From: Chloroflexota bacterium
GTDB lineage: Bacteria > Chloroflexota > Limnocylindria > Limnocylindrales > CSP1-4
Assembly: GCA_021786385.1 (NCBI GenBank)
Contig: JAJYNJ010000063.1
Coordinates: forward strand, 1 to 32,882
Direction: 5' to 3'
DNA: 32,882 nt
The position numbers were made by a program, and so were the translations under genes. Shown piece after piece: positions 2,673 through 26,017 of this stretch (positions are counted from its first letter, which is position 1; every line of letters starts with the position of its first letter). The notes beneath the pieces are model-generated. The model was not told the DNA's origin and ran no database searches. It was given only the letters and a program-made list of their open reading frames with translations.

Positions 2673-2711
2673 GGGTTGGTGCCGCCACAGCGGCCGCCGG
2701 AGGAGAGATGC

Positions 2712-3497
2712 ATGAACCCAATCGATAATTTCCGACTCAGTGGGCGCGTCGCCCTGGTTTCCGGAGGTGGTGGCGCGATTGGCAGCGCGCTCGGTGAGGC
2801 CATGGCTGCGGCTGGGGCCAAGATCGTCCTTGCGGACATCGATCGGGATCACGTGGACGAGGCAGCGGTCAGGGTCCGTGCGGCGGGGGCAGAGTGTGTC
2901 GCGATCGCCGCCAACGTGACCGCCGAGGCTGACGCGGAACACGTCGTGCGGACCGCGCTCGACCAGTACGGGCGCCTCGACATCATCGTCAATGCGGTGG
3001 GCGGCGGGGCCGGCAAGGCACTCTTCGCAGCGCACGAGTATCCGCGAGATGCCTGGGACTCGATCATGGAGCTCAATCTGCGCTCCACTGTCGTGGCGAC
3101 GCAAGCAGCGGTCCGAGCAATGATCAAAGGCGGCGATGGTGGCCGGATCATCAACATCAGCTCGGTCCGGGCGTTGCTGGGGATCAATGCCGGATATTCG
3201 GCCTACGTTGCCGCCAAGGGGGCCGTCACCGCGCTGACCCGTCAATGGGCCACGGAGTGGGCGAAATACGGAATCACCGTCAATGCGATCGCACCGACCT
3301 TCGTGGATACACCACAGGTGGCGATGCTCCTTGCCGATGAGAAATTCCGAACCGATCTGGTCAGCCGCGTTCCCCTCGGTCGTGTCGGCCGCACTGACGA
3401 TCTGGTGGGTCCCGTAATCTTCTTCGCATCACCGGCCTCTTCGTTTGTTACGGGTCAGATGCTCATGGTCGATGGCGGCTTGACGGCCACGCAATAG
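2712..3497 (+). CDS. Short-chain dehydrogenase/reductase (SDR)
   Basis: Classical SDR of 261 aa: an NAD(P)-dependent Rossmann-fold oxidoreductase of the 3-oxoacyl-ACP-reductase-like or sugar/polyol dehydrogenase-like group. The glycine-rich cofactor loop reads SGGGGAIG near residue 16, followed by the acidic LADID at the end of strand 2, which favours NAD(H). The catalytic serine lies in INISSVRA, Y165 and K169 form the YxxxK pair in SAYVAAKGA, and the C terminus has the usual GQMLMVDGGL. An in-frame ATG at 2676 would add 12 residues, but the GGAGGAGAG ribosome site at 2699-2707 fits the ATG at 2712. It follows mmsA by 39 bases in the same direction. Substrate is unassigned; the NNAG motif is altered to NAVGG. 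Confidence 0.9.
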   Translation: MNPIDNFRLSGRVALVSGGGGAIGSALGEAMAAAGAKIVLADIDRDHVDEAAVRVRAAGAECVAIAANVTAEADAEHVVRTALDQYGRLDIIVNAVGGGAGKALFAAHEYPRDAWDSIMELNLRSTVVATQAAVRAMIKGGDGGRIINISSVRALLGINAGYSAYVAAKGAVTALTRQWATEWAKYGITVNAIAPTFVDTPQVAMLLADEKFRTDLVSRVPLGRVGRTDDLVGPVIFFASPASSFVTGQMLMVDGGLTATQ

Positions 3498-3539: not shown

Positions 3540-4418
3540 ATGGGTATGGAACAGCTGACGCGCAACGTGTGGACGACGACGAAGCTCAGGGGCTGCAACC
3601 CCAGCTTCGTGAGCACGTCCGACGGCGTGGTCGTGATCGACACGCCACAGCTGCCGACGAAGGCCGTCGTGATGCGGCGGGAGGCGGAGTCACACGGGCC
3701 GATCCGCTACCTGATCAACACCGAACACCACGTCGACCACATCTTCGGCAATCATTGGTTCAAAGGTGCGGGTACTGTCGTGCACCACCAAGGCGTGCAC
3801 GAGCGGTTCATGGTTGCATACCCTGAACTCGACCCATTCGAGTACGCGCTCGAGGCGATCCCGACGGATGATCCCGATGGCGGAGCATTGGTCCCTTCCC
3901 GCGAGGCGTACTACGCTGATCTCAACAAGTACGGCATCGTGTTTACCGGCGATCTCACGCTATTCGTGGGGGACCATACGTTCCGGCTCTTGCACACTCC
4001 AGGACATACACCTGGTCAGGTCGCCGTGCACGTCCCTGAAGAGCGGGTTGTCTTCACTGGGGACACCATCTTCTCGGAGTGCGCAACGTGGCTGATGACG
4101 TCGGACGTCGATCGATGGCTGGCATCGCTCGAGCGCCTGCGCTGTCTCGATGTGGATTACGTGGTTCCGGGGCACGGCCCAGTGACTGACCTGCGATATA
4201 TCGCGACTCAACGGGCGATGTTGTTGGAATGGAAGGCCGCGGTGGCCGTCGCCGTCGCGAAAGGCTGGACGCGTGAGGAGACGGTGGAGCGAGTTAGCTT
4301 CGCGGACCGGTATCCGGTGGATGTCGGCCAGGAGTACATGATGGACTACATCCAGCGAATGAACGCTGGCTCGCTGTGGGACAAGCTGACCGCAGCGCCG
4401 CAAGTTGCGGGTTGTTAG
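3540..4418 (+). CDS. Metallo-beta-lactamase-fold hydrolase with ExHxDH metal motif
   Basis: A 292-aa MBL-fold protein. The family binds one or two metals and hydrolyses thioesters, lactones, phosphodiesters or similar bonds. The first motif, normally HxHxDH, reads E62-x-H64-x-D66-H67 here (TEHHVDH), so the first histidine ligand is replaced by glutamate. The other ligands are present: H156 in HTPGHTPG, D175 in FTGDTIF and H212 in PGHGP. The C-terminal region is helical with no added domain recognised. A GAGAGGA ribosome site at 3532-3538 lies close before ATG 3540; a second in-frame ATG at 3546 is better spaced, so the first two residues are uncertain. The gene sits between an SDR and a PPDK-like protein in a probable operon. 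Substrate is unknown. Confidence 0.9.
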   Translation: MGMEQLTRNVWTTTKLRGCNPSFVSTSDGVVVIDTPQLPTKAVVMRREAESHGPIRYLINTEHHVDHIFGNHWFKGAGTVVHHQGVHERFMVAYPELDPFEYALEAIPTDDPDGGALVPSREAYYADLNKYGIVFTGDLTLFVGDHTFRLLHTPGHTPGQVAVHVPEERVVFTGDTIFSECATWLMTSDVDRWLASLERLRCLDVDYVVPGHGPVTDLRYIATQRAMLLEWKAAVAVAVAKGWTREETVERVSFADRYPVDVGQEYMMDYIQRMNAGSLWDKLTAAPQVAGC

Positions 4419-4442: not shown

Positions 4443-6677
4443 GTGTCATCAACGAACTGGGCGTCCAAGCGCTTGTTGGCGAGGGAGCATGAGGGCGTGA
4501 CCCGCGTCTACGATCTGGACCACGACCACGCGCTACCCCTCGAGCAGGTGAACACGTTGGTCGGGGGCAAAGCAGCGAACCTGAACGTCATGGCTCGGGA
4601 ACTCGGGCTCCCGGTCCCGCCAGGGTTCGTGTTGACGACGGAAACTTGTGTGCAGTACCTCGCCAGCGGGTGGCCTGCCGACCTGGAGGAGGAGATGCGC
4701 GCGCACATGGAACGGGTCGAAGCGCGGGTTGGTCGGCGTTTCGGGGACCCGCGCGACCCGCTCTTGGTGAGCGTCCGCTCTGGTGCACCGGTTTCGATGC
4801 CCGGCATGATGGACACGATCTTGAACGTCGGGCTCACCGAGGCGGTTGTCGCCGGATTGGCAACGGTGACCGGCGACGCGGCCTTCGCGCGAGATTGCCA
4901 GCGCCGGTTCCAGGCGATGTACCGCGAAACAGTGGGTGGCCTGCCCCCTGACGATCCGTGGCTTCAATTGCGGGGCGCGGTAGAGGCGGTCTTTCGGTCT
5001 TGGAACAGCGAGCGGGCGCGCGCCTATAGGCGGCGGGAGGGGATCGCCGACCACCTCGGGACCGGGGTGGTGGTCCAGGCGATGGTCTTTGGCAACCGCG
5101 ACGAGGACTCGGCCACCGGGGTAGTCTTCACACGCAACCCGGCCACTGGCGAGCCGCAGCTCTATGGCGACGTCCTCTTTCACGCCCAGGGAGAAGACGT
5201 GGTCGCGGGGACACACGATCCAGCGCCGATCGCTCTCCTCGAGGAACGGCTTCCGGCGGTCGCCGGGGAGCTGCGCACGATCGCGGCCACACTCGAGCGC
5301 CATTACGCGGATCTCTGCGACATCGAGTTCACGATCGAGTCGGGTCGCCTCTGGCTTCTGCAGGTGCGGGTCGGCAAGCGTAGCCCTCGTGCAGCCCTCC
5401 GGATGGCGGTCGAGATGGCGGAGGACCCATCGTTCCCCCTAACCCGGGCGGAAGCCGTGCGTCGGGTCGCAGCATACCTCGCCGATCCGCCGCTGGTCGA
5501 GGTTCACCACGCACAACGGCCGCGACCGTTGACGGTGGGGCTGCCGGCGTCGCCAGGGGTGGCGAGCGGAGAGATCGTCGTCGCCCCCGACATCGCAGAG
5601 ATCGCGGCCGCCGAAGGGCGTTCCGTGATCCTGGTGCGTACCGAGACCTCGCCCGAGGATGTGCGCGGGATGGCGCACGCGGCTGGCGTCTTGACCGCCA
5701 AAGGCGGGTTGGCGAGCCACGCGGCCGTGGTGGCCCGTGGCTGGGGGATCCCGGCGGTCGTAGGCGTCGGGGCGCTCGAGGTCGGTCCGGGTGGCATCGT
5801 GGTCGCCGGTCAGCAGTTTGCCTGCGGGGATACGATCACGATCGACGGAGACGGCGGGGAGGTCTTCGCGGGAGTGGTGCCGAGCAATCGGGAACCAGCG
5901 CCCGAGGCCGCGCTCCTGTTGCGCTGGGCGAGGGAGCTTGGGATCCCGATCGGCGGCACAGACGCGTCCGCCGCCGCTCGTCCGCCCGCACGCGCCACTA
6001 GCTCGACGGCAAGCGACGACGGGGAGCGTCGTGCCGGGGCTGGAGCGACGAGCGAAGGTGATGCCGACGATCTCGTCCGAACGATGTTGGTCAAGGGGCG
6101 CGCCGCTCCTGAGGCGCTCGCCGCGGCGCTGGGGGTCTCTCCAGGCCATGTCAGCGCCCTACTGGACCGGTTGGCGGAGGCCGGGATGGTCGACGCTGGT
6201 GGGTTTGGATCACGCCTCACCGAGCTCGGTCAGGCGCGCGCCGTCGCCCTGTTCGCGACCGACCGGGACCGCATGGGCGGCGCGGCTGCCGTCAAGGAGC
6301 TCCTCGATCGCTTCCTCCCGCTCGACCAGGAGATCAAGGCGCTTGTCACGACGTGGCAGATGCGGACCGTCGATGGTCGGGCCGTCGCGAACGACCACAC
6401 CGACGGCGCGTACGATGCGGCGCTGCTCGAGCGGCTGGCGAACCTGCACGCCGCGGTGGTGGCGTGGCTGGAGCCGCCGTGCGAGGTGCTGCCGCGTCTC
6501 CGCGGCTACCGCGACCGGTTACAACGGGCACTGGACCAGGCCCGCAATGGGGATCGACGCTTCGTTGCCTCCCCGTTGGTGGAGAGCTACCACACCGTCT
6601 GGTTCGAGCTCCACGAGGAGTTGATCCGGCTCTCTGGCAAGACGCGGGCCGAGGCTACCGCTACCCCGTCGGGATAG
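4443..6677 (+). CDS. PPDK-like protein: ATP-grasp plus phosphohistidine domain, no PEP barrel, C-terminal winged helix
   Basis: Residues about 20-330 match the ATP-binding domain of pyruvate phosphate dikinase: GGKAANLN, SVRSGAPVSMPGMMDT, FTRNPATGE, HAQGEDVVAGT, CDIEFTIESGRLWLLQVR. Residues about 360-480 are the swivelling domain with the phosphohistidine H426 in KGGLASHAAVVARGWG. The roughly 350-residue PEP/pyruvate-binding TIM barrel of full PPDK (about 870-900 aa) is absent. After a low-complexity linker (about 495-540) comes a winged-helix-like segment (APEALAAALGVSPGHVSALL, then LTELGQAR) and a helical C terminus. Short mycobacterial PpdK proteins also lack the barrel. The protein could still make phosphohistidine from ATP, but the acceptor is unknown. 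GTG at 4443 has a weak ribosome site; an in-frame GTG at 4497 is an alternative that keeps all motifs. Confidence 0.85.
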   Translation: MSSTNWASKRLLAREHEGVTRVYDLDHDHALPLEQVNTLVGGKAANLNVMARELGLPVPPGFVLTTETCVQYLASGWPADLEEEMRAHMERVEARVGRRFGDPRDPLLVSVRSGAPVSMPGMMDTILNVGLTEAVVAGLATVTGDAAFARDCQRRFQAMYRETVGGLPPDDPWLQLRGAVEAVFRSWNSERARAYRRREGIADHLGTGVVVQAMVFGNRDEDSATGVVFTRNPATGEPQLYGDVLFHAQGEDVVAGTHDPAPIALLEERLPAVAGELRTIAATLERHYADLCDIEFTIESGRLWLLQVRVGKRSPRAALRMAVEMAEDPSFPLTRAEAVRRVAAYLADPPLVEVHHAQRPRPLTVGLPASPGVASGEIVVAPDIAEIAAAEGRSVILVRTETSPEDVRGMAHAAGVLTAKGGLASHAAVVARGWGIPAVVGVGALEVGPGGIVVAGQQFACGDTITIDGDGGEVFAGVVPSNREPAPEAALLLRWARELGIPIGGTDASAAARPPARATSSTASDDGERRAGAGATSEGDADDLVRTMLVKGRAAPEALAAALGVSPGHVSALLDRLAEAGMVDAGGFGSRLTELGQARAVALFATDRDRMGGAAAVKELLDRFLPLDQEIKALVTTWQMRTVDGRAVANDHTDGAYDAALLERLANLHAAVVAWLEPPCEVLPRLRGYRDRLQRALDQARNGDRRFVASPLVESYHTVWFELHEELIRLSGKTRAEATATPSG

Positions 6678-6778
6678 GCGCCTCTGTTGTCCGACGAAGG
6701 GAAGCAGGCGCGGTGGAGGCCAGCTCGGCTGCCGAGGATTGGCGGACGCAGGCGGGTCGCCCCCGGCCGGCGGGCTTG

Positions 6779-7579
6779 TCACGGTTCCACGAACGCCGCT
6801 CGCAGGGCCTGTTGCTCGCGCGGGCCGAGCCCCAGCGCGTCGGCAACGTACTCCTCGATCGAACCGTGTCGGCGGCGCACTTCGTGGAGCGCCGCTTCGA
6901 GGTACGCACGACGAACGGTCAGGATCGGTCGCAGCAGTTCGGGGTCGCCGCCTCGATCGCGGGAACTGGTCGAGCTCGCGGTCGACCAGCGGCGCCAGTC
7001 GTGCGTTGCTCAGCAAGAAATCGGCGACCACCAGTTCCTCGGGAACGCCGAGAGGGAGCAACAATGCGGCGGCCGCCCAGCCGGTGCGGTCTTTCCCCGT
7101 TGAACAATGTACGAGCACTGGGCGAACGGCTGCATCCGCAAGGCCACGGAAGAGTCGCCCGTAGGCGTCGCAGGCGCTCTCCAGTCGGACAAAATCTCGA
7201 TAGTGGGCGACCCACATCGCGGCCGCGCGTCCATCGCGCAGGATCGCGGTGCTTGCGACGGGGTCATCGAGGAAGGCACGCAACTGCGCTGGGCTACCGA
7301 GCGCGGTGTCTCCGATCACGTCGGCCACGACGGAAGAGACGTTGGCCAAGATCGGGTCAGGGGCCGACTCGCGCTCAGGCGCGGTGCGCAGGTCATAGAT
7401 CGTGCGCACCACGAGGCTGGCACACGCGGCGGTGTCGGCCGGCGACAGTCCGTAGAGTGCCATCGACCGGTAGCAGAGCCCAGTTCGGACAGCCCGCCCT
7501 CCTTGGTTGGATAGCCACCCGCGCCGCGCAGGTTGAGGAGCGAACGCATCGATAGAAGCGGCGCGTCCAACTTGGTCAT
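6779..7579 (-). pseudogene. Tyrosine/dual-specificity phosphatase-like protein, two apparent frameshifts
   Basis: Read on the minus strand from ATG 7579, the protein begins MTKLDAPLLSMRSLLNLRG and GGYPTKEGG, changes frame near 7493-7495, continues as VRTGLCYRSMALYGLS and TIYDLRTAPE, carries the P-loop phosphatase signature VLVHCSTGKDRTG (Cys near 7104), changes frame again near 6953-6963, and ends GGDPELLRPILTVRRAYLEA to a TGA at 6779. All three pieces match one bacterial tyrosine phosphatase of the NxRDxGG / HCxxGKDRTG type, about 265 aa if repaired. One missing base (in a G run) and one extra base would restore the reading frame. The gene follows livF with the same orientation, 83 bases downstream. 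Either it is a recent pseudogene or the assembly has two indel errors. Confidence 0.8.
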
Positions 7580-7617
7580 CGGTCTCTTCTCTTGCGGGTT
7601 CGCGATCCCTCGCCGAA

Positions 7618-7632
7618 CGGCGCGAAGCGCCG
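7618..7632 (-). terminator. GC-rich hairpin after livF
   Basis: A perfect 6-bp stem (CGGCGC / GCGCCG) with a GAA triloop lies about 30 bases downstream of the livF stop and before the phosphatase-like gene. There is no T tract, so it is only a possible attenuator or Rho-dependent pause site, not a canonical intrinsic terminator. Confidence 0.3.
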
Positions 7633-7662
7633 GAACGGTCTGCGTGCCGCGACGCGGATCAA

Positions 7663-8436
7663 TCAAATGGCGCGCGGTGCGGCCGCGGCGCTGGGCGAGC
7701 TTGCTCCCGCGCTGCCGACCGGCTCGACGCCGAGGTACCGACGCTGCGCGCTTTGATCCGCCATAAGCGTCTCGGCGCTCGTCTCGTGGACGATCTCGCC
7801 CCCCAGCACGATCAGAATGCGGTCGGCCAGGGCGGTTGCCACGGCGAGGTTCTGTTCCACGAGGAGGAGCGACACTCCTTCGGCAACGAGCGTGCGACAG
7901 GTCTCGACCAATGTCTCGACGACCGTGGGTGCGAGGCCTTCCGACGGTTCGTCCATGATGAGCAGCGACGGATTGGTCAGGAGCGCCCGTCCGATCGCCA
8001 GCATCTGTTGTTCGCCACCAGAGAGACGCACCCCACTGATGTGCCGTCGCTGCGCAAGCGCCGGGAAGAGCTGGTACACCGCGTCGATTGTCCACCGGCC
8101 CCGTTGCACCAGCCGCTGGTCGATCATGCGGAGGTGCTCGTCGGTGGTGAGCGAGCGGAAGAGACGGCGGCCCTGTGGCACGTAGCCGATCCCCTGGCGG
8201 CAGATCTCGTACGGCGCGCGACCGATCAGCTCGTGCCCGGCAAAGCGAGCCGAGCCATGGGCGCGCGGCGGCGCAATCCCCATCAACGCTTTGCAGAGGG
8301 TTGTCTTGCCCATGCCGTTCCGCCCCACGACGGCCGTGGCGCCGTTGCCGATCGAGCACGTGAGACCGTGCAGGACGTGGGCGCCGCCGTAGAAGGCGTG
8401 CAGCTCGCGGATCTCGAGCATCGGTTCAGACGGCAT
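7663..8436 (-). CDS. livF: Branched-chain amino acid-type ABC transporter ATP-binding protein LivF
   Basis: ABC ATPase of 257 aa, the LivF-type partner that powers uptake together with LivG at the cytoplasmic face of the LivHM permease. Walker A is GRNGMGKTT, the signature is LSGGEQQMLAIGRAL, Walker B is LLIMDEPSEGLAP, and the switch histidine region reads LLVEQNLAVA, all typical of LivF (SEGLAP after Walker B is characteristic). The chosen ATG at 8436 overlaps the livG stop by 11 bases; an in-frame ATG at 8421 is also possible and would give a more usual MLEIREL start. It is last of the four livHMGF genes. The family imports hydrophobic amino acids but many members take up aromatic acids, amides or urea, so the substrate is open. 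Confidence 0.93.
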   Translation of the reverse strand: MPSEPMLEIRELHAFYGGAHVLHGLTCSIGNGATAVVGRNGMGKTTLCKALMGIAPPRAHGSARFAGHELIGRAPYEICRQGIGYVPQGRRLFRSLTTDEHLRMIDQRLVQRGRWTIDAVYQLFPALAQRRHISGVRLSGGEQQMLAIGRALLTNPSLLIMDEPSEGLAPTVVETLVETCRTLVAEGVSLLLVEQNLAVATALADRILIVLGGEIVHETSAETLMADQSAQRRYLGVEPVGSAGASSPSAAAAPRAI

Positions 8437-9178
8437 ACGTACGCCCCAGGTAGATGTCGTGGACGCGCTGGTCCGCGCGGATTTCGGCCGGTGTCCCTTC
8501 TAGCACGACACGCCCGTAATGCATGATCGTGACCCGTTCCGCGATCGTCAGGGCCACGTCCATATCGTGCTCGATGAGCATGACGGTGACGTCGCGGTCG
8601 AGCGAGAGCAACAGCTGGGTGAGGAGCTGGCGTTCGGCCCGCGACAATCCGGCGGCGGGCTCGTCGAGCAGAAGGAGGCGTGGTTCAGCGACCATGGCGA
8701 TCCCAAGCTCGAGTTGGCGTTGCTCGCCATGGGAGAGGTCACGGGCCGACGAGCGCAGGCGGTCCGCAAGGCCGACGCGCTCCGCAGCGCCACGTGCCCG
8801 GGACCGGAGGCGCGCGTCCCGGCGGTTCGCGACGAACCGCAAATGCCCACCGTCGGCACCCAACGCTGCGACGTACAGGTTGTCTTCGACGCTGAGGCCT
8901 GGCAGGACTCGCGATGTCTGAAAGGTGCGCGCCAAGCCAAGTCGGGCCCGCTGCCACGCAGGGAGGTTTGTCACGTCGCGACCGAACAGTTCGATCGCGC
9001 CCGCGGTTGGCCGCTCTGCGCCGGCGATCAGGTTGAAGAGGGTGGTCTTGCCCGCCCCGTTGGGCCCCAGGACAGCGCGACGCTCGCCCGGCGTCACCTC
9101 CATCTCGACGGCCTGGACGGCGTCCACTCCGGCAAAGCTCTTGGACAGGTTGCGTAAGCGGACGATGGACTCGTTCAC
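8426..9178 (-). CDS. livG: Branched-chain amino acid-type ABC transporter ATP-binding protein LivG
   Basis: ABC ATPase of the LivG type, 250 aa from the GTG at 9178. Walker A is GPNGAGKTT, the Q-loop region reads GLARTFQTSRVLPGLSV, the signature is LSHGEQRQLELGIAM, and Walker B is LLLLDEPAAGLS with IEHDMDVAL after it, as usual for LivG. An ATG at 9211 is in frame but would overlap livM by 29 bases; the GTG at 9178 has GAGGGG upstream on the minus strand and leaves a 4-base gap to the livM stop, so I prefer it. LivG and LivF form the heterodimeric motor of the importer. Confidence 0.93.
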   Translation of the reverse strand: MNESIVRLRNLSKSFAGVDAVQAVEMEVTPGERRAVLGPNGAGKTTLFNLIAGAERPTAGAIELFGRDVTNLPAWQRARLGLARTFQTSRVLPGLSVEDNLYVAALGADGGHLRFVANRRDARLRSRARGAAERVGLADRLRSSARDLSHGEQRQLELGIAMVAEPRLLLLDEPAAGLSRAERQLLTQLLLSLDRDVTVMLIEHDMDVALTIAERVTIMHYGRVVLEGTPAEIRADQRVHDIYLGRTYAV

Positions 9179-9182
9179 GTCG

Positions 9183-10190
9183 CTAGCCCCTCGGTTGCTC
9201 GCTCGCGCCACGATCGGCGAGAGCCGGCAGCTGCTGGTTGCTCAGGGCGTGGCGGACTCGTCGGTCGATCGACGTAAGGACCCCCGTCAGCCCGCCGGGC
9301 GACACCAGAACGATCGCCAAGAAGAGGATGCCGAGGACGGTGGCGTAGCGGTCCGTGAAAGCGGGGCCGTAGATCGAGAGGACGGTGAGGGTGAACGCCC
9401 CGATCCATGCCCCCTCCAAGCTGTACATCCCCCCGATAACCGCGGCCTCGAGCACCCCGATCGTTACGCCGAGTGAGATCGAGTCGGCTGAGATCCGCGT
9501 GTTGGTCCACGCCGCAAGGACACCCGCCGTGCCTGCGATGGCGGCGGCCAGCGCGAAGGCCAAGGTGCGGTGCACGCGGACGTTGTAGCCGAGGGCCGTC
9601 ATCCGCTCGGGATCGTCCCGGACCCCCTGCAGAGCCATCCCAAACGGGGTGCGTACCAGGTAACGCAGGAGGAGGTGGAAGCCGACGGCGACCAGGAGGA
9701 TGAAGTAGTAGATCGCGGTGGGATGCCGCACCGGATCGCCGAGCCACGACGGCGGGAAGACGGCGTTGATCCCTTCGTGGAGGCCAAATGCCGGGACGGC
9801 CGAGAAGAGGTAGTAGCTGATCTCGCCGAGCGCGAGTGTGATCATCAAGAAGTACGTGCCGGTGCTGCTGCTCGCCAATGCTCCAAAGAGGAGGCCCGCG
9901 GTAGCGGCGGCGGCGATCCCGATCAGCCCGGCGAGCGCCGGATCGACGTGTGATTCCACGGCCAGCGAGGCGGCGAGGAGGCCGGCAACGCCGAAGAGCC
10001 CAGTTTGGGCGAGCGACACGAGACCGCCGTAGGTCGAGAGGAAGGTCAGGCTGATCGCGCAGAGGCCGGTGGTCAGCGTGGGGAGCGCGATCGAGCTCGA
10101 GACGTACGTCGGGGATAGCTCTGGCAGCAAGGTAACCATGATCCCGATCACGGCGAGCACGATCCAACGCGCCGTGGTGTACGCGCGCAT
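9183..10190 (-). CDS. livM: Branched-chain amino acid-type ABC transporter permease LivM
   Basis: Integral membrane permease of 335 aa with about nine or ten hydrophobic segments. It starts at ATG 10190 (MRAYTTARW) and shares one base with the livH stop (TGATG), indicating coupled translation. LivM landmarks are GGLVSLAQTGLFGVAG, SSSTGTYFLMITLALGE, RTPFGMALQGVRDDPERMTALG (the cytoplasmic coupling loop) and GGMYSLEGAWIGA. It pairs with LivH to form the translocation pore. A much longer open frame extends upstream through livH, but that part is a shadow. The C terminus ends with a short polar tail. Confidence 0.93.
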   Translation of the reverse strand: MRAYTTARWIVLAVIGIMVTLLPELSPTYVSSSIALPTLTTGLCAISLTFLSTYGGLVSLAQTGLFGVAGLLAASLAVESHVDPALAGLIGIAAAATAGLLFGALASSSTGTYFLMITLALGEISYYLFSAVPAFGLHEGINAVFPPSWLGDPVRHPTAIYYFILLVAVGFHLLLRYLVRTPFGMALQGVRDDPERMTALGYNVRVHRTLAFALAAAIAGTAGVLAAWTNTRISADSISLGVTIGVLEAAVIGGMYSLEGAWIGAFTLTVLSIYGPAFTDRYATVLGILFLAIVLVSPGGLTGVLTSIDRRVRHALSNQQLPALADRGASEQPRG

Positions 10191-11296
10191 CAGGCTGGCC
10201 TCCCAAACAGGCCGGTCGGCTTGAGCGCGAGGACGGCCGCTACCAGGACGAAGGTGACGACCATCGAGTAGGGGCCAAAGCCGGAGGGAAGGTAGACGGC
10301 CGAGTACTGTTCCACGAACGCCAGGAGGAGCGCGCCGATCGCTGCGCCTGCCAGGCTCCCCATCCCACCGATGATCACGACGACGATCGAGCTGACGAGA
10401 AAGACTTGGTCTTGGCCCGGTGCGAGGGAGAGGACGGTGCCGCCAAAGGCGCCCCCCAGCCCCGCGAGACATGAGCCGACGAAGAACGCCACGGCGAAGA
10501 CCGCGCGGACGTTGACGCCAAGCGCCGAGGTCATCGCGCCATCGTCGATCCCGGCGCGCACCACCATCCCGAAGCGAGTCCGTTGGATCCAGAACCAGAG
10601 CGCGATCCCGACCGCCAGTGCCACCCCCACCACGAAGAGCCGGAAGGCGGGGTAGGAGAGGTCGTAGATGCCGAGTCCGACCGGACCGGCGAGCAGATCG
10701 GGCGGCGAGACCTGCTGGGCGGTGCCGCCGAAGACGTTCAGCATCTGGTCGGCGAGGATCACCGACAGCGCGATGGTGATGAGGGCCTGGCGAAGGTCCT
10801 GGCCGAGGTTCCAACGGAGGAAGAGCTCCTCCATAGCCAGGCCGAAGACTCCGGCGGCGAGGGTGGCCACGATCACGGCAACCCACCAATTGACGCCCAA
10901 CGAGCTCGTCAGGGACCAGGCGATGTAGCCCCCGAGGAGGTAGAGCGACCCGTGCGCCATATTGACCACGCGCATCAGCCCGAAGATGAGGGTCAGGCCG
11001 CTCGCCGCGAGAAAAAAGAGCCCCGCCAGGCTGAGCGCGTTGAGGGTGATGATGATGAAGTTCGGGACGTTGCCGGACTCCCCCAGGCCGGCGTCGAAGA
11101 CTTGGTAGAACACCCAGGCGGCGCTGAGCACCGCCAAGGCACCCGCGACCGAAGCGCTTCGCCCGACTGCTAGCTGTCCCCGGCTGAGGAGGCCACGCCA
11201 CCTGGCCCACGCGCGGCCACGCCACCTGGCCCACGCGCCGCCACGCTCCGGCGCCCCCTCGCCCTCGGTGCTCCGCCGCCCGCCGCGTGTCTCCAT
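10190..11296 (-). CDS. livH: Branched-chain amino acid-type ABC transporter permease LivH
   Basis: Membrane permease of 368 aa, first gene of the minus-strand livHMGF operon. The core has the LivH pattern: NALSLAGLFFLAASGLTLIFG, RVVNMAHGSLYLLGGYIA, RTRFGMVVRAGIDDGAMTSALG and the final IGGMGSLAGAAIGALLLAFVEQY. The N terminus before the first membrane segment is unusually long (about 45 residues), Arg/Trp/Gly-rich, and contains an 8-residue tandem duplication caused by a 24-bp DNA repeat. AGGAGG directly abuts the ATG at 11296, which is too close; a GAGGAGG about 13 bases further upstream may serve, or translation may begin at a later codon and the repeat-bearing leader may not be translated. 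It diverges from the binding-protein gene at 11587. Confidence 0.9.
   Translation of the reverse strand: METRGGRRSTEGEGAPERGGAWARWRGRAWARWRGLLSRGQLAVGRSASVAGALAVLSAAWVFYQVFDAGLGESGNVPNFIIITLNALSLAGLFFLAASGLTLIFGLMRVVNMAHGSLYLLGGYIAWSLTSSLGVNWWVAVIVATLAAGVFGLAMEELFLRWNLGQDLRQALITIALSVILADQMLNVFGGTAQQVSPPDLLAGPVGLGIYDLSYPAFRLFVVGVALAVGIALWFWIQRTRFGMVVRAGIDDGAMTSALGVNVRAVFAVAFFVGSCLAGLGGAFGGTVLSLAPGQDQVFLVSSIVVVIIGGMGSLAGAAIGALLLAFVEQYSAVYLPSGFGPYSMVVTFVLVAAVLALKPTGLFGRPA
11191..11238. repeat. Perfect 24-bp tandem duplication in livH 5' end
   Basis: Positions 11191-11214 and 11215-11238 are identical 24-mers. In the livH frame each unit encodes eight residues, so the protein carries AWARWRGR followed by AWARWRGL. 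A partial third unit may begin after 11238. The unit length is a multiple of three, so copy-number change keeps the reading frame. Confidence 0.9.
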
Positions 11297-11325
11297 CCTC
11301 CTGGTCGCAACCTCCTCGGTTCTCC

Positions 11326-11353
11326 TTGACTCGACCTGGACGCAGGGTATACT
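11326..11353 (+). promoter_or_regulatory. Sigma-70-like promoter for the binding-protein gene
   Basis: TTGACT at 11326-11331 and TATACT at 11348-11353 are separated by 16 bases, a close match to the housekeeping promoter consensus in an otherwise GC-rich region. It points toward the binding-protein gene at 11587 and lies in the divergent gap with livH. It implies an untranslated leader of about 225 bases. Confidence 0.6.
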
Positions 11354-11586
11354 ACCGCTTAAGGATTATCGATTATCGTGCAAATGGCGCCAGCCAGCAT
11401 GGGCGGGCGTGGGGGACGAGCAGGACGGGAGATGGTGTGGCGCCCTGAGGGGCGTTTGTCTGTCCTGGCTGGCCGAGAAGGAGGGCGATGGAACACGGAA
11501 CGCGAGGTGTGTAGCCGACCCTGGCGCAGGCGGCTGAAGACGGACCGCATATCGAGGAGTCTGACTTTACAAAGGAGGCACGGGGT
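11354..11586 (+). other. Long leader of the binding-protein mRNA with GATTATC tandem repeat
   Basis: No gene is supported here. Just after the promoter, GATTATC occurs twice in tandem (11364-11377), an AT-rich island that could bind a regulator of the divergent liv genes. Further on, GCGCCCTGAGGGGCG near 11440-11455 can fold as a short stem. The region ends with a strong AAAGGAGG ribosome site (about 11570-11577) before ATG 11587. I did not recognise a known riboswitch. Confidence 0.35.
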
Positions 11587-13017
11587 ATGCACGGCCGATC
11601 GACCGATCCGACACGCGGTAGGTCACGTCAACTGGGTCTGCTCAGCATCGCCGCGGCGGCAGTCCTGGTAGTTTCAGCATGCAGCGGTGCGGCACCCACG
11701 GCGTCTCCGGCTGCACCCGCAAGCGCGGCGGCGACCGCGGCTGCGAACGCCGCCGCGGCGGGCGCAAGCACCGCGGCGGCGACGGCGGTGGGGAGCCCAA
11801 TCAAGATCGGGATCCTCACCACATGCGGCGGGCCGTTCGTCAGCTTCGAAGCCGAGTCGTTCTCGGGCGCGAAGTACGGTCTGATCAAGTTCGCTGGCGG
11901 GACGGCTGCTGGGCAGAACCCTGAGGATCAAGTCACGGGCGCCAGCGTGGACGGCCACCCGATCCAGATCTACTTCGGCTGCTCGGACGCGACTCCTGAC
12001 GTCGCAGTCGCCCAGGCGCGGCAGCTCGTCGAGGGCCAAAAGGTCGACATTCTCCTCGGCCCGCTCTCCGGTGACGAAGGGGTCGCCGTGGCGAACTACG
12101 CCAAGACACAGCCGAACGTCACCTTCGTGAATGGGACGTCGGGGGCGCAATCGACGACGCTGGCGGTCAAGGCGCCGAACTTCTTCCGGTTCGGCGGCGA
12201 TGGCGCCCAGTGGATGGCTGGCCTTGGCACGTACGCCTACAAGACGCTGGGATGGCGGAAAGTCGCGATCCTCGGTGAGGACTACTCGTACCCCTACACC
12301 CAGGCGGCGGGGTTCGTCGCGGAGTTCTGTTCGCTCGGAGGCAAGATTCCACAGCGGACCTGGGTTCCCCTCGGGGTGAGTGACTATTCCTCATACGTCG
12401 CTCAGCTGCCGCGCGACGTGGATGGCATCCTGCTCTTGACAGGCGGCACGGATACGATCGCTGCCGAGAAGAGCTACCTGCAACTGGGGGGTAACCCAGG
12501 CAAGAAGATGCTCGGCGGGTCGTCCGTGATGGATCCCACCTCGTTCGGCGTCGGCGACTCCCTGGTAGGGCTCGTCGGCGGGTCCCCCGTGCCGCTTGGT
12601 GGGACGAGCCCGGAGTGGGCCGACTACGTGAACGGCTTCCTGAGCGTCTACCCCAAAGTTCCCGCCGACAGCCTCTTCACCGTCCTCTACTACGATGGGA
12701 TGCAGGCGATCATCCAGGCACTCCAGAAGGTGAACGGCGATCTCTCGAACGGGGAGACTGCGTTCCGCGCCGCGTTGACCAACCTCAACCCGACCTTCCC
12801 CAACGGCTCGGCCACCCTCGACGCGAACCGCAATTCGATCCAGCCGGCCTATGTCGTCCAGATCGTGAAGACGAGCAGCGGCCTCGGCTTCAAGGTGCTC
12901 GAGACCGTCAAGGACGTGTCCCAGACATTTGGCGGGCTCTTCGGTCCGAACTCGCCGACCCCGAGTCGCACGCAGCCCGCCTGCACCGCTGGTAACCCGC
13001 CGCCGTGGGCCAAGTGA
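11587..13017 (+). CDS. Branched-chain amino acid-type ABC transporter substrate-binding lipoprotein
   Basis: A 476-aa periplasmic-binding-protein type 1 (Peripla_BP_6-like) lipoprotein. The N terminus has basic residues, a hydrophobic stretch and a lipobox VVSAC with lipidation at the cysteine near residue 32, followed by an Ala/Ser/Thr-rich linker to about residue 68. The binding domain starts at PIKIGILTTCGGPF, where the family usually has an acidic or Ser/Thr pattern for ligand contact, and continues with VDILLGPLSGDEGVAVANYA and KVAILGEDYSYPYTQAAGF. The gene has a strong AAAGGAGG ribosome site. It diverges from livHMGF and supplies the missing binding protein for that importer. The ligand cannot be assigned from sequence; the neighbouring molybdenum hydroxylase suggests a small carboxylate or heterocycle (inference). 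Confidence 0.93.
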   Translation: MHGRSTDPTRGRSRQLGLLSIAAAAVLVVSACSGAAPTASPAAPASAAATAAANAAAAGASTAAATAVGSPIKIGILTTCGGPFVSFEAESFSGAKYGLIKFAGGTAAGQNPEDQVTGASVDGHPIQIYFGCSDATPDVAVAQARQLVEGQKVDILLGPLSGDEGVAVANYAKTQPNVTFVNGTSGAQSTTLAVKAPNFFRFGGDGAQWMAGLGTYAYKTLGWRKVAILGEDYSYPYTQAAGFVAEFCSLGGKIPQRTWVPLGVSDYSSYVAQLPRDVDGILLLTGGTDTIAAEKSYLQLGGNPGKKMLGGSSVMDPTSFGVGDSLVGLVGGSPVPLGGTSPEWADYVNGFLSVYPKVPADSLFTVLYYDGMQAIIQALQKVNGDLSNGETAFRAALTNLNPTFPNGSATLDANRNSIQPAYVVQIVKTSSGLGFKVLETVKDVSQTFGGLFGPNSPTPSRTQPACTAGNPPPWAK

Positions 13018-13024
13018 GAGGACT

Positions 13025-13087
13025 GTGAGCCGGTCTCACAGGTGATACGGTGGGGTCCAGCCTGCGGCCCCAGACGGGACCCCACCG
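13025..13087 (+). terminator. Tandem hairpins after the binding-protein gene
   Basis: Two inverted repeats follow the stop codon. The first is GTGAG-CCGGT-CTCAC at 13025-13039. The second has an 11-bp perfect stem, CGGTGGGGTCC at 13048-13058 with GGACCCCACCG at 13077-13087, and an 18-base loop. No T run follows, so this is a terminator-like or mRNA-end-stabilising structure rather than a textbook intrinsic terminator. Confidence 0.5.
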
Positions 13088-13168
13088 CGTACGCACAGAC
13101 CGTGTTGGTCGTACCGACATCGTCGCGCCAATCCTGATTGTGGGCGATCGGGGGACACCGGGGAGGTC

Positions 13169-14956
13169 ATGCGCGTGACCGAGATGAGCGAAGAGATCCT
13201 GGGGCAGTTCCTGGGAGACGAGAACTTTCCAATCACGTGGGATTCAGAGCTCGAAAAGCAGCTCTTTTGGGTCTACGACGACCTCCACTCCCCTCATCCA
13301 CTGAGCCCTATGTATTTCGACATCGGCGGCTGGTGGTTGACGTGCGACCACATGTTCCGTCGCTTTGGCACTCCCTTCGCGTGCGACTGGATCGCCAAGA
13401 ATGTCAACGGCTACCTGTACACGGCCGCGGTGCCGCCACGTCCTGAGTTCCGGGTCGACGCATCGGAGTACGGGGCTCGCTATGGAGCCCGCACCCCGCT
13501 GGATCCACAATATGCCGCGCGGATCGGCGCGTATCTTGACACGGTACTGCCAGTCTACGGACAGGAATTTGCGAGCTGGTGGCGAGATCGCTTCGTCCCT
13601 GAGATGCAGCGCAATTTTGCGTATCTTGAGGATCAGCTGGATCAGCAAGACAAGCTGACGTTACCGGCCCTCGCTTGTCTGCTCGAAGACGCGATCGATA
13701 TTCATGATCGTCACTGGAAAATCCACTGGATGTTGAACTTTGCGCAGCTCTCGGCCACGCTCAACTTGCGAGCCGTAGCCGAGAAGACGCGGGGCGCCGT
13801 GGACGAAAAGCTCCTGGGGCGTTTGCAGAACTCAGTGACAGATCGGAACTGGGACTCGATCGAAGCGCTGTGGAGCATGAAGGAAGAGGCGAAATCAGAT
13901 CCGGAGCTCGCGGAAGCGTTCGCCGGGGAGACCGCCGATGAGATCCTTGCTCGGTTGCAGGCGTCCGGCCGTGGACGCCGTTATCTAGGCGAGCGAGTCG
14001 CTCCCTACCAGCGTGAATTCGGTTGGCACGCCGTCTGGAGCCACGAGTTGGTCTTCCCAACGGTGCGTGAGAATGTGGCGCCTGTGCTGGAGTCGGTGCG
14101 GGAGTACATCCAGTCAGACTACGATTACCCCAAGGTGCACCAGGAGGCACGAGACGATCTCGCTCGCGCGTCCCAGGAGATCTTGGAGGAGCTGGAGGGA
14201 GCTGCACTGGAGGAGATGCGCACGGCGCTGGAAATGAACCTCCGCCTAGCTCCGTTGACACCAGACCATCACTTCTACATCGATCAAGGTACCAACGCGC
14301 ATCTGCGTCTTGTCTTACTGGCCATCGGCAAGAAGCTGGTGCATGCCGGCGTGCTCGACAACCCTGAGGACGTCATGTTCCTCAAGTACAACGAGTTACG
14401 TGAGTTGATCGGAGATCACGCCGCGTTCGACGGTCGTGCCGTGGTGACCTCGCGACGTGCTGAGCGGGAGCGGCAGTACCGTATGCACCCGCCCGACTGG
14501 ATCGGGACTGCTACCCCGAGCCAGCTGGCGTTCCCATACCTGATCAACTGGGGCTTTCCGGACAAGTTTTACCGTTCAGCGCCGAAGCGCGCCAACCAGC
14601 TCACCGGCATCGCCGGCTCCCCTGGGGTCGTGGAGGGGACTGCGCGAGTCGTCCTGGACGAGGCGCAGTTCGACGACGTGAGAACGGGCGACATCGTGGT
14701 CTGCCAAATGACGAACCCCGCATGGGTCCCGCTGTTCACCCGGATGGCTGGTCTCGTGACCGACTCCGGCGGAACGACATCCCACTCGGCAGTTCTCGCG
14801 CGCGAGTTCGGGATGCCCGCGGTGGTCGGCACCTCGACGGCGACACGGACGATCAGCACCGGCGATCGCGTGCGGGTTGATGGGACCAACGGAGTCGTCG
14901 AGATCCTCGACAGTAGGCAACAGGCCCCAGAGGGTGGCGAGATGAGGGAACGATGA
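13169..14956 (+). CDS. PEP-synthase-like protein with C-terminal phosphohistidine (swivelling) domain
   Basis: A 595-aa protein. Residues about 485-580 form the PEP-utiliser swivelling domain: GIAGSPGVVEGTARVV, then GGTTSHSAVLAREFGMPAVVG with the probable phosphohistidine H539. The long N-terminal part is helical, begins LFWVYDDLHSPHPLSPMYFD, and resembles the region preceding this domain in PEP-synthase-like and phenylphosphate-synthase-type proteins. There is neither an ATP-grasp domain nor a PEP/pyruvate barrel, so it must receive phosphate from a partner; the 4443-6677 protein has an ATP-grasp domain and is a candidate. GGGAGG precedes ATG 13169; ATG 13184 is an alternative. It overlaps the HprK-like gene by 4 bases (ATGA), indicating coupled translation. 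The acceptor is unknown. Confidence 0.85.
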   Translation: MRVTEMSEEILGQFLGDENFPITWDSELEKQLFWVYDDLHSPHPLSPMYFDIGGWWLTCDHMFRRFGTPFACDWIAKNVNGYLYTAAVPPRPEFRVDASEYGARYGARTPLDPQYAARIGAYLDTVLPVYGQEFASWWRDRFVPEMQRNFAYLEDQLDQQDKLTLPALACLLEDAIDIHDRHWKIHWMLNFAQLSATLNLRAVAEKTRGAVDEKLLGRLQNSVTDRNWDSIEALWSMKEEAKSDPELAEAFAGETADEILARLQASGRGRRYLGERVAPYQREFGWHAVWSHELVFPTVRENVAPVLESVREYIQSDYDYPKVHQEARDDLARASQEILEELEGAALEEMRTALEMNLRLAPLTPDHHFYIDQGTNAHLRLVLLAIGKKLVHAGVLDNPEDVMFLKYNELRELIGDHAAFDGRAVVTSRRAERERQYRMHPPDWIGTATPSQLAFPYLINWGFPDKFYRSAPKRANQLTGIAGSPGVVEGTARVVLDEAQFDDVRTGDIVVCQMTNPAWVPLFTRMAGLVTDSGGTTSHSAVLAREFGMPAVVGTSTATRTISTGDRVRVDGTNGVVEILDSRQQAPEGGEMRER

Positions 14957-15840
14957 AGGCCCAACTCCAGTGTTCCGAGGAGATGTCGGCCGGTGCTGCC
15001 CGCTTGCGTGTGGACGTATTAGGTGGCACACCGCGAGAGCATGTGCTCGAAGACATGACCTTCCTGAACTACCGACTCGCGGACGTTCGGCTCGAAGCAC
15101 ACCCGACCTTGGCTGAGCCTGACATCGTCTGGTATCAGGACGGCGAGAAGGATGTCACGTACGACGGGCGTAGGGTGACGTTCACCGGTGACTGGCCCGC
15201 GGGGCCAATCCAGAAGGTCGTCGTCGCCCTGTTGGCCCTGCGGATGGAGGCCCAGGGCCTGCATCCGTTCCACGCCTCGGCGGTGCGCTACCGAGGCAAG
15301 ACCATCATGTTCTTGGGCGGCGAATCGAACCACGGTAAGTCGATGGCGCAGATCGAGGCATGTCGCCGTGGCGCTCTCCTCGTCTCGACCGAGACGACGG
15401 TGGTAGACGAAGCAGGCCGAGTGGTGGTCGGCTCGAAGGAGCCCTTCATCAAGAAACGCACCGAAGGGACGGAACGCGCCGACAAGGCGGCTCCGGAACG
15501 CGGCGTCGAGAAATTCTTCGGCTCGATGCCTACCTGTTCGGTCTACGCGGAGCCCAGCGCGGTGGACCTGGTGGTGGTGCCCTCGATCGATGGCAATTTC
15601 GACCCTGATCTTAGTGCGATGATCCCCTTCGAGCGACAGTTCCAGTCGCTCCACTCGCTGCAGAATTACGTTCTCTTGAACGAGCTCCTCGCGCCCGGGT
15701 TTCCCATGCCGATCGTCGACAGCGACGCGTTGCGACGACGCCGTGCCGAGTTCGTGGCGCGGTTCGCCGAACGCCCGTACTACTTCGTCCGCGCAGCGAC
15801 CCCACAGGTCCTACTCGACCAGGTCGAGCAGGTGCTCTGA
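14953..15840 (+). CDS. HPr-kinase-like P-loop protein
   Basis: A 295-aa protein resembling the HprK/PEP-carboxykinase-like P-loop fold. The hallmark is HASAVRYRGKTIMFLGGESN followed by HGKS, giving a Walker A G123-E-S-N-H-G-K129-S130; HPr kinases have a similar sequence, with a beta strand and a histidine-containing segment before a GESGxGKS loop. After the P loop, where HPr kinases and relatives usually carry an Asp-Asp pair (VADD-like), this protein has V144-S-T-E-T, so the catalytic acidic pair is not conserved. No N-terminal HprK domain and no HPr gene are seen. Its start overlaps the phosphohistidine-protein gene by 4 bases and it is followed after 15 bases by the molybdenum hydroxylase genes. 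It may modify or sense the neighbouring protein. Family assignment is moderate; function is unknown. Confidence 0.65.
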   Translation: MKAQLQCSEEMSAGAARLRVDVLGGTPREHVLEDMTFLNYRLADVRLEAHPTLAEPDIVWYQDGEKDVTYDGRRVTFTGDWPAGPIQKVVVALLALRMEAQGLHPFHASAVRYRGKTIMFLGGESNHGKSMAQIEACRRGALLVSTETTVVDEAGRVVVGSKEPFIKKRTEGTERADKAAPERGVEKFFGSMPTCSVYAEPSAVDLVVVPSIDGNFDPDLSAMIPFERQFQSLHSLQNYVLLNELLAPGFPMPIVDSDALRRRRAEFVARFAERPYYFVRAATPQVLLDQVEQVL

Positions 15841-15855: not shown

Positions 15856-16728
15856 ATGCACCGGTTCGTCTACGAGCGTCCCGAGGCGCTCGCGGACGCG
15901 GTCGAGCTCTTCGCGCGCCACGGGGCGGCGGCGCGGCCGCTGGCTGGTGGGACCGACCTCATCATCGGCCTGCGCGACGGTTCCGCGCGCCCGGCGGTCG
16001 TGGTCGATCTCAAGCGGATCGCCGAGTTGCCGCCGACCATCGAGGAGCAGGGTTCGTGGCTCCGCATCAGCGCGACCGTGGTGATGTCGGACCTGCTGGC
16101 GGACGCGCGAATCCGACATGAATTCCCCGCGCTCGCGGAGGCGGCCGCCGCCGTGGGATCGGTGCAGATCCGTAACCGCGCGACGGTCGCGGGGAACATC
16201 TGCAACGCATCACCGGCCGCGGACACCGCGCCGCCGCTGCTCGTCTACGGTGCGGTGGTCGTCGCGGTGAGCGACGCGGGCACCCGCCGCATCCCACTCA
16301 CCGACTTCTTCGTGCGCTCTGGTGTCACGACGCTCCGATCCGACGAGTTCGTCACTGCGATCGAGCTGCCCCGCCCCTCGGCACCCCTAGGAGCGGTCCA
16401 CCTGCGGCGCACGCGCCGCCGTGGGCACGACCTGGCCTCGGTCACCTTGAGCTGCGCGATCGACCGGGACGGGGTGACCCGTTTGGCGTACGGGAGCGTC
16501 GGCCCACGGCCGATCCTCGTGGTCGACGAGAGCGGCCGGCTTGCCGACCGTGGCGCGTCCGACACGGTCAAAGAGGCGATCCTGGACCGGCTGTTCTCAG
16601 CAGCGTCCCCCTCCCCCCGCTCGATGCGCGCCAGCCCCGAGTACCGGTTGGCGATGCTGCGCGTCTTGGGACGCCGTGCCGTCCGCGTGGCGCTCGTCCG
16701 GCTCGACGGAGGTGTCCAGGATGGGTGA
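15856..16728 (+). CDS. Xanthine dehydrogenase family protein, FAD-binding (medium) subunit
   Basis: A 290-aa FAD-binding subunit of the CoxM/XdhB type that passes electrons from the iron-sulfur subunit to the final acceptor. Typical FAD-contact motifs are present: LAGGTDLIIGLRDGSARP near residue 33 and TVAGNICNASPAADTAPPLL near residue 112 (family TIGGN...PasD). The C-terminal CO-dehydrogenase flavoprotein-like region follows. It is first in the order medium-small-large, the order seen in carbon monoxide dehydrogenase and many aldehyde or heterocycle hydroxylases. Its stop overlaps the small-subunit start by 8 bases. Confidence 0.93.
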   Translation: MHRFVYERPEALADAVELFARHGAAARPLAGGTDLIIGLRDGSARPAVVVDLKRIAELPPTIEEQGSWLRISATVVMSDLLADARIRHEFPALAEAAAAVGSVQIRNRATVAGNICNASPAADTAPPLLVYGAVVVAVSDAGTRRIPLTDFFVRSGVTTLRSDEFVTAIELPRPSAPLGAVHLRRTRRRGHDLASVTLSCAIDRDGVTRLAYGSVGPRPILVVDESGRLADRGASDTVKEAILDRLFSAASPSPRSMRASPEYRLAMLRVLGRRAVRVALVRLDGGVQDG

Positions 16729-21073: not shown

Positions 21074-21122
21074 GGGGAAGATCCTTTCCCCGCCCTGGAG
21101 TGGGAAGCGAGACTACGCGGCC

Positions 21123-21140
21123 TGTCTCAGCTCAGGCTGA
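21123..21140 (-). repeat. IS right terminal inverted repeat
   Basis: On the minus strand it reads TCAGCCTGAGCTGAGACA, matching the left end except for a single inserted base. It lies about 50 bases upstream of the orfA start, the expected position for an IS3-family end. Confidence 0.75.
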
Positions 21141-26010: not shown

Positions 26011-26017
26011 CATGGCA

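What the first reader, a model, noticed from the sequence alone, without database searches (positions are those of the whole stretch)
4443..14956. Dispersed PEP-synthase-like phosphotransfer proteins without the pyruvate barrel
Seen: the 4443-6677 protein has the PPDK ATP-binding domain and phosphohistidine H426; the 13169-14956 protein has a phosphohistidine H539 domain but no ATP-binding domain. Neither has the PEP/pyruvate barrel. Known: phenylphosphate synthase uses separate polypeptides for the ATP-binding part and the histidine part of a PEP synthase to phosphorylate phenol. Inference: these two proteins may together phosphorylate a non-pyruvate substrate linked to the importer and the molybdenum hydroxylase encoded between and after them.
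Basis: partly seen in the sequence, partly recalled or inferred. Interest (0 to 1): 0.62.

Follow-up and report, generated by a model that had tools for sequence, protein, structure and literature searches.

The report
Two-part kinase with swapped ATP donor
Two proteins from one bacterial gene cluster most likely work as a split enzyme in which one burns ATP and hands its phosphate through histidines to the other, which puts it on a nutrient; the ATP part belongs to the same family as VadK, a tuberculosis kinase with no known phosphate acceptor, and has replaced the ATP part used in other phyla.

Summary
The 4443-6677 protein (P1) has a PPDK-type ATP-grasp plus phosphohistidine H426; the 13169-14956 protein (P2) has the RPH/PpsA-like half with H539 and no ATP-grasp; neither has the barrel, and the genome's only barrels are in a full PPDK and PTS EI. 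The phenylphosphate-synthase idea is right for P2 (same architecture as HpeH/PpsA/CreH) but wrong in detail for P1. P1 is a VadK (Rv1127c)-class protein with its own histidine, fused to a winged-helix/helical domain that elsewhere is a separate gene beside VadK. In 151 related genomes P1 and P2 co-occur (43 both, 1 and 6 alone; p = 5e-30). P2 orthologs in Thermogemmatispora, Solirubrobacter and Rhodobacteraceae instead have a stand-alone PEP-synthase-class ATP-grasp. Of 65 P2-bearing genomes typed, 46 have P1, 19 the stand-alone donor and none was seen with both; the P2 tree needs only 2 switches. So P1 is very probably P2's ATP-side partner, a new donor type for two-component small-molecule dikinases, possibly using a His-to-His relay. 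VadK-class, accessory and P2-like genes also cluster in Mycobacterium, Rhodococcus and Diaphorobacter. The substrate is unknown; Mo hydroxylase and HprK-like genes are conserved neighbours.

The parts
4443..6677 (+). P1: VadK-class ATP-dependent phosphoryl donor (PPDK-type ATP-grasp, swivel domain, C-terminal accessory domain)
   Evidence: Pfam PPDK_N + PEP-utilizers; NCBIfam PRK05878 509.8 bits over cut-off 456; best PDB match PPDK 6.7e-116, over the ATP-grasp and swivel parts
5718..5720 (+). Codon of P1 catalytic His426 (GGLASHAAVVAR)
   Evidence: Aligned to the PPDK catalytic His; H in 27/27 homologs
6036..6674 (+). P1 C-terminal domain (aa 532-744): winged helix plus helical bundle; a separate gene next to VadK-like genes elsewhere
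   Evidence: AlphaFold pLDDT 91.8; DtxR/MarR-like winged helix only, E >= 5e-3; stand-alone homologs beside VadK-like genes
13169..14956 (+). P2: RPH/HpeH/PpsA-like subunit: substrate domain plus phosphohistidine swivel domain, no ATP-grasp
   Evidence: PEP-utilizers only; NCBIfam PRK08296 and RPH-type C-terminal parts; RPH PDB match 1.8e-31 over aa 379-581
14783..14785 (+). Codon of P2 catalytic His539 (GGTTSHSAVLAR)
   Evidence: H in 88/88 homologs
14953..15840 (+). HprK/PEPCK-fold P-loop protein (GGESNHGKS), start overlaps P2 stop
   Evidence: AlphaFold pLDDT 85.4; Foldseek ATP-PEPCK 5e-8 and HprK 1.3e-4; 64-83% identity in 24 relatives
15856..16728 (+). Molybdenum hydroxylase FAD subunit
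   Evidence: Pfam FAD_binding_5 5.4e-46
16541..17194 (+). Molybdenum hydroxylase 2Fe-2S subunit (ORF; true start probably near 16725)
   Evidence: Pfam Fer2_2 2.2e-28
17128..19560 (+). Molybdenum hydroxylase large subunit
   Evidence: Pfam MoCoBD_1/2, Ald_Xan_dh_C; no NCBIfam function model over its cut-off
3..1088 (+). Transaldolase/FSA-like protein, recurrent cluster member
   Evidence: PF00923 6.9e-35, far below NCBIfam cut-offs; syntenic
1134..2672 (+). Aldehyde dehydrogenase of methylmalonate-semialdehyde type
   Evidence: TIGR01722 615 bits over cut-off 448.5; syntenic
2676..3497 (+). Short-chain dehydrogenase, recurrent, also beside P2 in the stand-alone-donor clade
   Evidence: adh_short
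3540..4418 (+). Metallo-beta-lactamase-fold hydrolase, just upstream of P1
   Evidence: PF00753 2.2e-26; syntenic
11587..13017 (+). Branched-chain-type ABC substrate-binding protein
   Evidence: Peripla_BP_6 1.5e-45
7663..11296 (-). Branched-chain-type ABC importer: two ATPases (7663-8436, 8426-9211) and two permeases (lower part of the reading frame 9183-11234; 10190-11296)
   Evidence: ABC_tran and BPD_transp_2

Best explanation
P1 and P2 are the two components of a small-molecule dikinase. P1's PPDK-type ATP-grasp takes a phosphoryl group from ATP, probably with Pi giving AMP + PPi, onto its own H426. The phosphate reaches H539 on P2's swivel domain, either by His-to-His transfer or by P2's swivel visiting P1's ATP site. 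P2's swivel then delivers it to a hydroxyl of a catabolic substrate held in P2's rifampin-binding-like domain. The phosphorylated compound enters a pathway with the molybdenum hydroxylase, SDR, aldehyde dehydrogenase and hydrolases. P1's C-terminal domain is the fused form of an accessory protein that elsewhere is encoded next to VadK. Shown: domains, invariant catalytic residues, genomic pairing, replacement of the alternative donor. Inferred: phosphotransfer between P1 and P2, its route, the PPi product. Unknown: the substrate.
For: Complete catalytic set in P1, and a single swivel His plus substrate domain in P2. P1/P2 co-occurrence: 43 both, 1 P1 only, 6 P2 only, 101 neither of 151 genomes, Fisher p = 5e-30; on one contig within 15.1 kb in 25 of the 43. 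P2 orthologs outside this group lie by a stand-alone PEP-synthase-class ATP-grasp. Of 65 P2-bearing genomes with a typed donor, 46 have P1 and 19 the stand-alone one, none seen with both; the P2 tree needs 2 changes (shuffled minimum 13). No stand-alone ATP-grasp in the own genome. Mechanistic precedent: HpeHI, where the H subunit's swivel His carries phosphate to the phenol (PMC12167813), and VadK, which autophosphorylates on its His with ATP/Mg (PMC13400623).
Against: No biochemical evidence; no complex was modelled. P1 having its own swivel domain is unexpected for a mere donor, so the route is uncertain. Six genomes have P2 and no detected P1 (mostly incomplete MAGs; one has a P1 fragment at a contig end) and one has P1 without P2. 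Several Actinobacterial-type loci carry VadK-class + accessory genes without a P2-like gene nearby, so VadK-class proteins are not always paired locally. Part of the co-occurrence reflects common descent.
Confidence: 0.75

Rival explanations
1. P1 is an independent VadK-like regulatory histidine kinase that acts on cluster enzymes, and P2 takes phosphate from the PTS (EI/HPr) or from the full-length PPDK.
For: VadK is described as a regulator binding methylcitrate-cycle enzymes (PMC13400623). The own genome has EI and HPr on contig C93 and a full PPDK on C73. EI alone can phosphorylate rifampicin in vitro (PMC13099321).
Against: Exclusive use of P1 or the stand-alone ATP-grasp by P2 orthologs with only two switches is expected for a donor and not for an unrelated regulator. 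PPDK is present whether or not P2 is.
Confidence: 0.13
2. P1 and P2 pair, but P1's ATP-grasp phosphorylates P2 H539 directly as in HpeHI, and P1's own swivel is regulatory or serves another acceptor (a sub-variant of the best explanation; overlaps with it).
For: HpeI and PpsB donors have no swivel and work this way (PMC12167813); the stand-alone donor it replaced lacks one too.
Against: P1 H426 and its GG..SHAAVVAR context are invariant or nearly so, hard to explain if the domain is bypassed; in PPDK-class enzymes the tethered swivel is the natural acceptor.
Confidence: 0.3
3. P1 and P2 phosphorylate two different substrates of one pathway and do not exchange phosphate.
For: They are not adjacent in most genomes, and P1 carries a C-terminal domain of its own.
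Against: P2 lacks any ATP site and would have no dedicated donor; the stand-alone ATP-grasp is what P1 substitutes for.
Confidence: 0.08
4. Decayed pieces of a PEP synthase or PPDK, or chance resemblance.
For: Both lack the barrel.
Against: Full-length open frames with invariant catalytic residues in dozens of genera and several phyla, in conserved clusters.
Confidence: 0.01

Closest known systems
Two-component phenolic dikinases HpeHI, CreHI, PpsAB (phenylphosphate synthase) (PMC12167813)
   Same: P2 has the H/A-subunit layout: rifampin-binding-like part plus C-terminal swivel His; ATP part on a second polypeptide; encoded in a catabolic cluster
   Different: Their ATP subunit is a small PEP-synthase-class ATP-grasp without His; P1 is PPDK class with its own phosphohistidine and an accessory domain
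VadK / Rv1127c (PRK05878) of Mycobacterium tuberculosis (PMC13400623)
   Same: PPDK_N + swivel His, no barrel; P1 is over the PRK05878 cut-off. VadK has an operonic partner, Rv1126c, that improves its solubility and was removed with 2 M NaCl during purification
   Different: P1 carries the accessory domain as a fusion and is coupled to P2; VadK is proposed to be a regulator of the methylcitrate cycle and no phosphate acceptor is shown. Homology of the P1 domain to Rv1126c itself was not tested
Rifampin phosphotransferase RPH (PMC4844700)
   Same: P2 corresponds to its rifampin-binding and swivel domains
   Different: RPH is one polypeptide with its own ATP-grasp
Pyruvate phosphate dikinase
   Same: P1's ATP-grasp and swivel
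   Different: No PEP/pyruvate barrel
PTS enzyme I / HPr relay
   Same: If the relay is real, a His-to-His phosphoryl chain ending on a small molecule
   Different: ATP instead of PEP; soluble two-protein chain; no EII

Membership tests
Two-component small-molecule dikinase (HpeHI/CreHI/PpsAB) | H subunit: rifampin-binding-like domain plus swivel domain with catalytic His, no ATP-grasp | tested here: met
   P2: (by sequence; P2 fold not predicted, HpeH/PpsA sequences not compared directly)
Two-component small-molecule dikinase (HpeHI/CreHI/PpsAB) | I subunit: stand-alone PEP-synthase-class ATP-grasp without a phosphohistidine | tested here: not met
   P1: PPDK model 518 bits vs PEP synthase 132; own swivel H426. 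The stand-alone partner of P2 orthologs elsewhere does meet it: 238 vs 58 bits
Two-component small-molecule dikinase (HpeHI/CreHI/PpsAB) | ATP-dependent phosphorylation of a phenolic substrate | not testable with these tools
   No assay; substrate unknown
VadK (PRK05878) | PPDK ATP-grasp + swivel His, barrel absent, over the family cut-off | tested here: met
   509.8 bits vs cut-off 456; no barrel
VadK (PRK05878) | Small accessory partner protein encoded with it | tested here: met
   P1 C-terminal domain is homologous to the gene next to VadK-like genes in M. avium, M. branderi and Diaphorobacter; Rv1126c sequence itself not compared
VadK (PRK05878) | ATP/Mg-dependent autophosphorylation on His | not testable with these tools
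   Only residue conservation
Pyruvate phosphate dikinase / PEP synthase | PEP/pyruvate-binding barrel (PF02896) | tested here: not met
   Absent from both proteins; own-genome copies only in full PPDK and EI
Rifampin phosphotransferase | All three domains on one chain, over NCBIfam RPH cut-off | tested here: not met
   P2 146.6 bits vs 999
HPr kinase/phosphorylase (14953-15840) | HprK/PEPCK P-loop fold | tested here: met
   Foldseek PEPCK 5e-8, HprK 1.3e-4; TM-scores low (0.2-0.48), so fold class only
HPr kinase/phosphorylase (14953-15840) | Match to Pfam/NCBIfam HprK families | tested here: not met
   No family hit

The most novel reading that the evidence does not exclude
P1 and P2 form an ATP-driven phosphorelay, ATP to P1-His426 to P2-His539 to small molecule, built from two swivel domains: a soluble, PTS-like chain that uses ATP (with Pi, making PPi). 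VadK-class proteins in general, including M. tuberculosis VadK, would then be donors whose natural acceptor is an RPH/HpeH-like protein.
Probability: 0.4. Interest if true: 0.75.

Novelty: new variant of a known kind. Interest (0 to 1): 0.58.

Why it matters
Two-component small-molecule dikinases were recognised as a subfamily only recently, with PEP-synthase-class donors in all characterised phenolic kinases (PMC12167813). Here the donor has been exchanged for a PPDK-class protein that carries its own phosphohistidine, an exchange that can be followed across phyla. It gives VadK, an autophosphorylating kinase of M. tuberculosis without a demonstrated phosphate acceptor, a concrete and testable class of acceptors, and reads its operon neighbour as a subunit that other bacteria fuse to it. 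It also marks a widespread, conserved but uncharacterised catabolic cluster, with cultured representatives (Thermogemmatispora, Thermomicrobium roseum) in which the stand-alone-donor version can be studied.

Tried and rejected
Stand-alone barrel partner: none in the assembly. HpeI-like ATP-grasp elsewhere in the own genome: none. Naming the substrate: family models for the Mo hydroxylase, transaldolase-like, MBL, cyclase and phosphatase neighbours are all below their curated cut-offs, and the recurring genes point both to heterocycle or aromatic breakdown (Mo hydroxylase, cyclase PF04199, FAH-like, ABM, formamidase) and to sugar-type carbon (transaldolase-like, transketolase-like, IolC-like kinase), so no call was made. 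A regulatory Thr next to the catalytic His, as in PEP synthase/PPDK, is not conserved in P1 or P2, so PDRP-like control is unlikely. Residues of P2 that track donor type: only two positions, and H378/R follows the clade rather than the donor. The phosphatase between P1 and the importer is not a core member. Papers on the cluster or on Tm-1-like/PEP-hydrolase function: none useful. The P1 + P2 complex and the P2 fold were not modelled (the two folding jobs went to P1's C-terminal domain and the HprK-like protein).
Full report
Observation. P1 (window 4443-6677, 744 aa) and P2 (13169-14956, 595 aa) are as described. P1 has PPDK_N (8.6e-49) and the PEP-utilizers swivel domain (1.4e-21); P2 has the swivel domain only (1.7e-25). 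P1 aligns with PPDK over its ATP-grasp and swivel (6.7e-116) and exceeds the cut-off of PRK05878, the short barrel-less 'pyruvate, phosphate dikinase' family (509.8 vs 456 bits; PPDK model 518, PEP-synthase models 132 and 111). K43, R112, E295, Q307, R309 and H426, aligned to the PPDK catalytic set, show no substitution in the homologs that cover them. P2 matches PRK08296 and the C-terminal halves of RPH-type proteins and RPH structures over aa 379-581 (1.8e-31). In the own genome PPDK_N occurs only in P1 and in a full PPDK, swivel domains in those plus P2 and PTS EI, barrels in PPDK and EI only.

Conserved cluster. In 20 relatives the same set recurs: P2, a GntR/FadR-type regulator (missing in this window), the HprK-like gene, the three Mo hydroxylase subunits and P1, with transaldolase-like, aldehyde dehydrogenase, SDR and MBL genes, and often Tm-1-like, PEP-hydrolase-like and ABC genes. 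Eighty named loci from Chloroflexota, Dormiibacterota, Actinomycetota and Pseudomonadota extend this.

P1 and P2 go together. Of 151 related genomes 43 have both, 1 P1 only, 6 P2 only, 101 neither; Fisher p = 5e-30 (the p-value ignores shared descent). The P1 class is separated from full PPDKs by score (P1 at least 733 bits; PPDKs at most about 394, one outlier of 533). In 25 of the 43 the genes share a contig within 15.1 kb; in the other 18 they are on different contigs of fragmented MAGs.

The donor switch. P2 orthologs in Thermogemmatispora, Rubrobacteraceae, Thermoleophilia, Acidimicrobiia and Rhodobacteraceae are accompanied by a stand-alone ATP-grasp of about 275 aa of PEP-synthase class (238 bits against 58 for PPDK), i.e. 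an HpeI/PpsB-like subunit. Thermomicrobium roseum has the same arrangement on its large plasmid. Among the 80 loci 24 show P1 (plus two fragments at contig ends), 18 the stand-alone donor, none both. For 23 loci without a local donor the whole genomes were searched: 19 have P1 elsewhere, Solirubrobacter pratensis has the stand-alone donor, three have neither. Of 65 typed P2-bearing genomes 46 have P1 and 19 the stand-alone one; the whole-genome check for 'both' was made only for the 23 and for the 151 relatives, where a few P1 genomes have other ATP-grasp genes at unrelated loci. On the P2 tree (quick maximum likelihood) donor type needs 2 changes against a minimum of 13 in 200 shuffles. This pattern is what is expected if P1 and the stand-alone ATP-grasp do the same job for P2.

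VadK connection. Homologs of P1's C-terminal domain are separate genes beside VadK-like genes: P2-like - accessory - VadK-like in Diaphorobacter; VadK-like - accessory - one gene - P2-like in a M. avium plasmid; VadK-like - accessory - P2-like in M. branderi; in Rhodococcus LW-XY12 the accessory domain is fused to an AMP-binding protein next to the VadK-like gene, with a P2-like gene nearby. Of 20 loci from the phylum of Solirubrobacter chosen only for the accessory domain, 9 have a VadK-class gene nearby and 2 of those a P2-like gene as well; 11 have no VadK-class gene. The VadK paper reports that VadK autophosphorylates on His422 and that its operonic partner Rv1126c improves its solubility and was removed by a 2 M NaCl wash (PMC13400623). 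P1 is thus read as a fusion of a VadK-class protein with its accessory subunit. The domain folds as a winged helix plus helical bundle (pLDDT 91.8); only the winged helix has PDB matches, weak ones to DtxR/MarR regulators.

HprK-like gene. AlphaFold and Foldseek place it in the PEPCK/HprK P-loop class (5e-8 and 1.3e-4, low TM-scores). No family model matches. Its role is open.

Mechanism. By precedent of HpeHI, where H581 of the H subunit is needed for transfer from ATP on HpeI to the phenol and HpeH alone transfers phosphate between phenols (PMC12167813), P2 is the substrate-phosphorylating subunit. P1 differs from HpeI in having its own, invariant swivel His. Two routes remain: relay H426 to H539, or direct phosphorylation of H539 at P1's ATP site. 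PPDK-class chemistry predicts AMP + PPi with Pi consumed, against AMP + Pi for the stand-alone donor. These steps are inferred. A PTS rival exists because the genome has EI and HPr.

Verdict. The phenylphosphate-synthase analogy needs changing: P2 is of that kind, P1 is of the VadK kind. The substrate is unknown. I rate it a new variant of a known kind.

Noticed in passing
window 6519-7463, minus strand: Tyrosine-phosphatase-family ORF (PF13350, 1.6e-31) between P1 and the importer, overlapping the end of P1 tail to tail; a homolog lies just upstream of P2 in a close relative (L023 10385-10882).
   Followed up: partly
window 19642-21042, minus strand: Integrase-core (rve_3) ORF between the Mo hydroxylase and a sensor kinase, probably a mobile-element remnant.
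   Followed up: no
window 24728-26854: Tm-1-like (UPF0261) and PEP-hydrolase-like genes side by side; in many relatives and in Thermomicrobium roseum the pair sits directly with the P2 cluster, suggesting a role in the same pathway.
   Followed up: partly
L094, L112, L106, L126: Clusters with the stand-alone donor add a cyclase (PF04199), a histidine phosphatase, FAH-like, ABM or DUF4202 genes in a compact arrangement; the histidine phosphatase may remove the phosphate later in the pathway.
   Followed up: partly
L124 7192-9453: In Rhodococcus LW-XY12 the VadK accessory domain is fused to the C-terminus of an AMP-binding protein, next to the VadK-like gene.
   Followed up: no
L139, L146: The accessory domain also lies beside a PEP-synthase-class ATP-grasp plus swivel protein (L139) and a 140-aa swivel-only protein (L146), so it may serve swivel domains generally.
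   Followed up: no
   Followed up: no
window 13169-15840: The GntR/FadR regulator that lies between P2 and the HprK-like gene in most relatives is missing here; the two genes overlap by 4 bp.
   Followed up: yes
window 20435-23997: PAS/GAF sensor histidine kinase with a LuxR-type response regulator downstream of the cluster; not seen as conserved in the syntenic loci.
   Followed up: no
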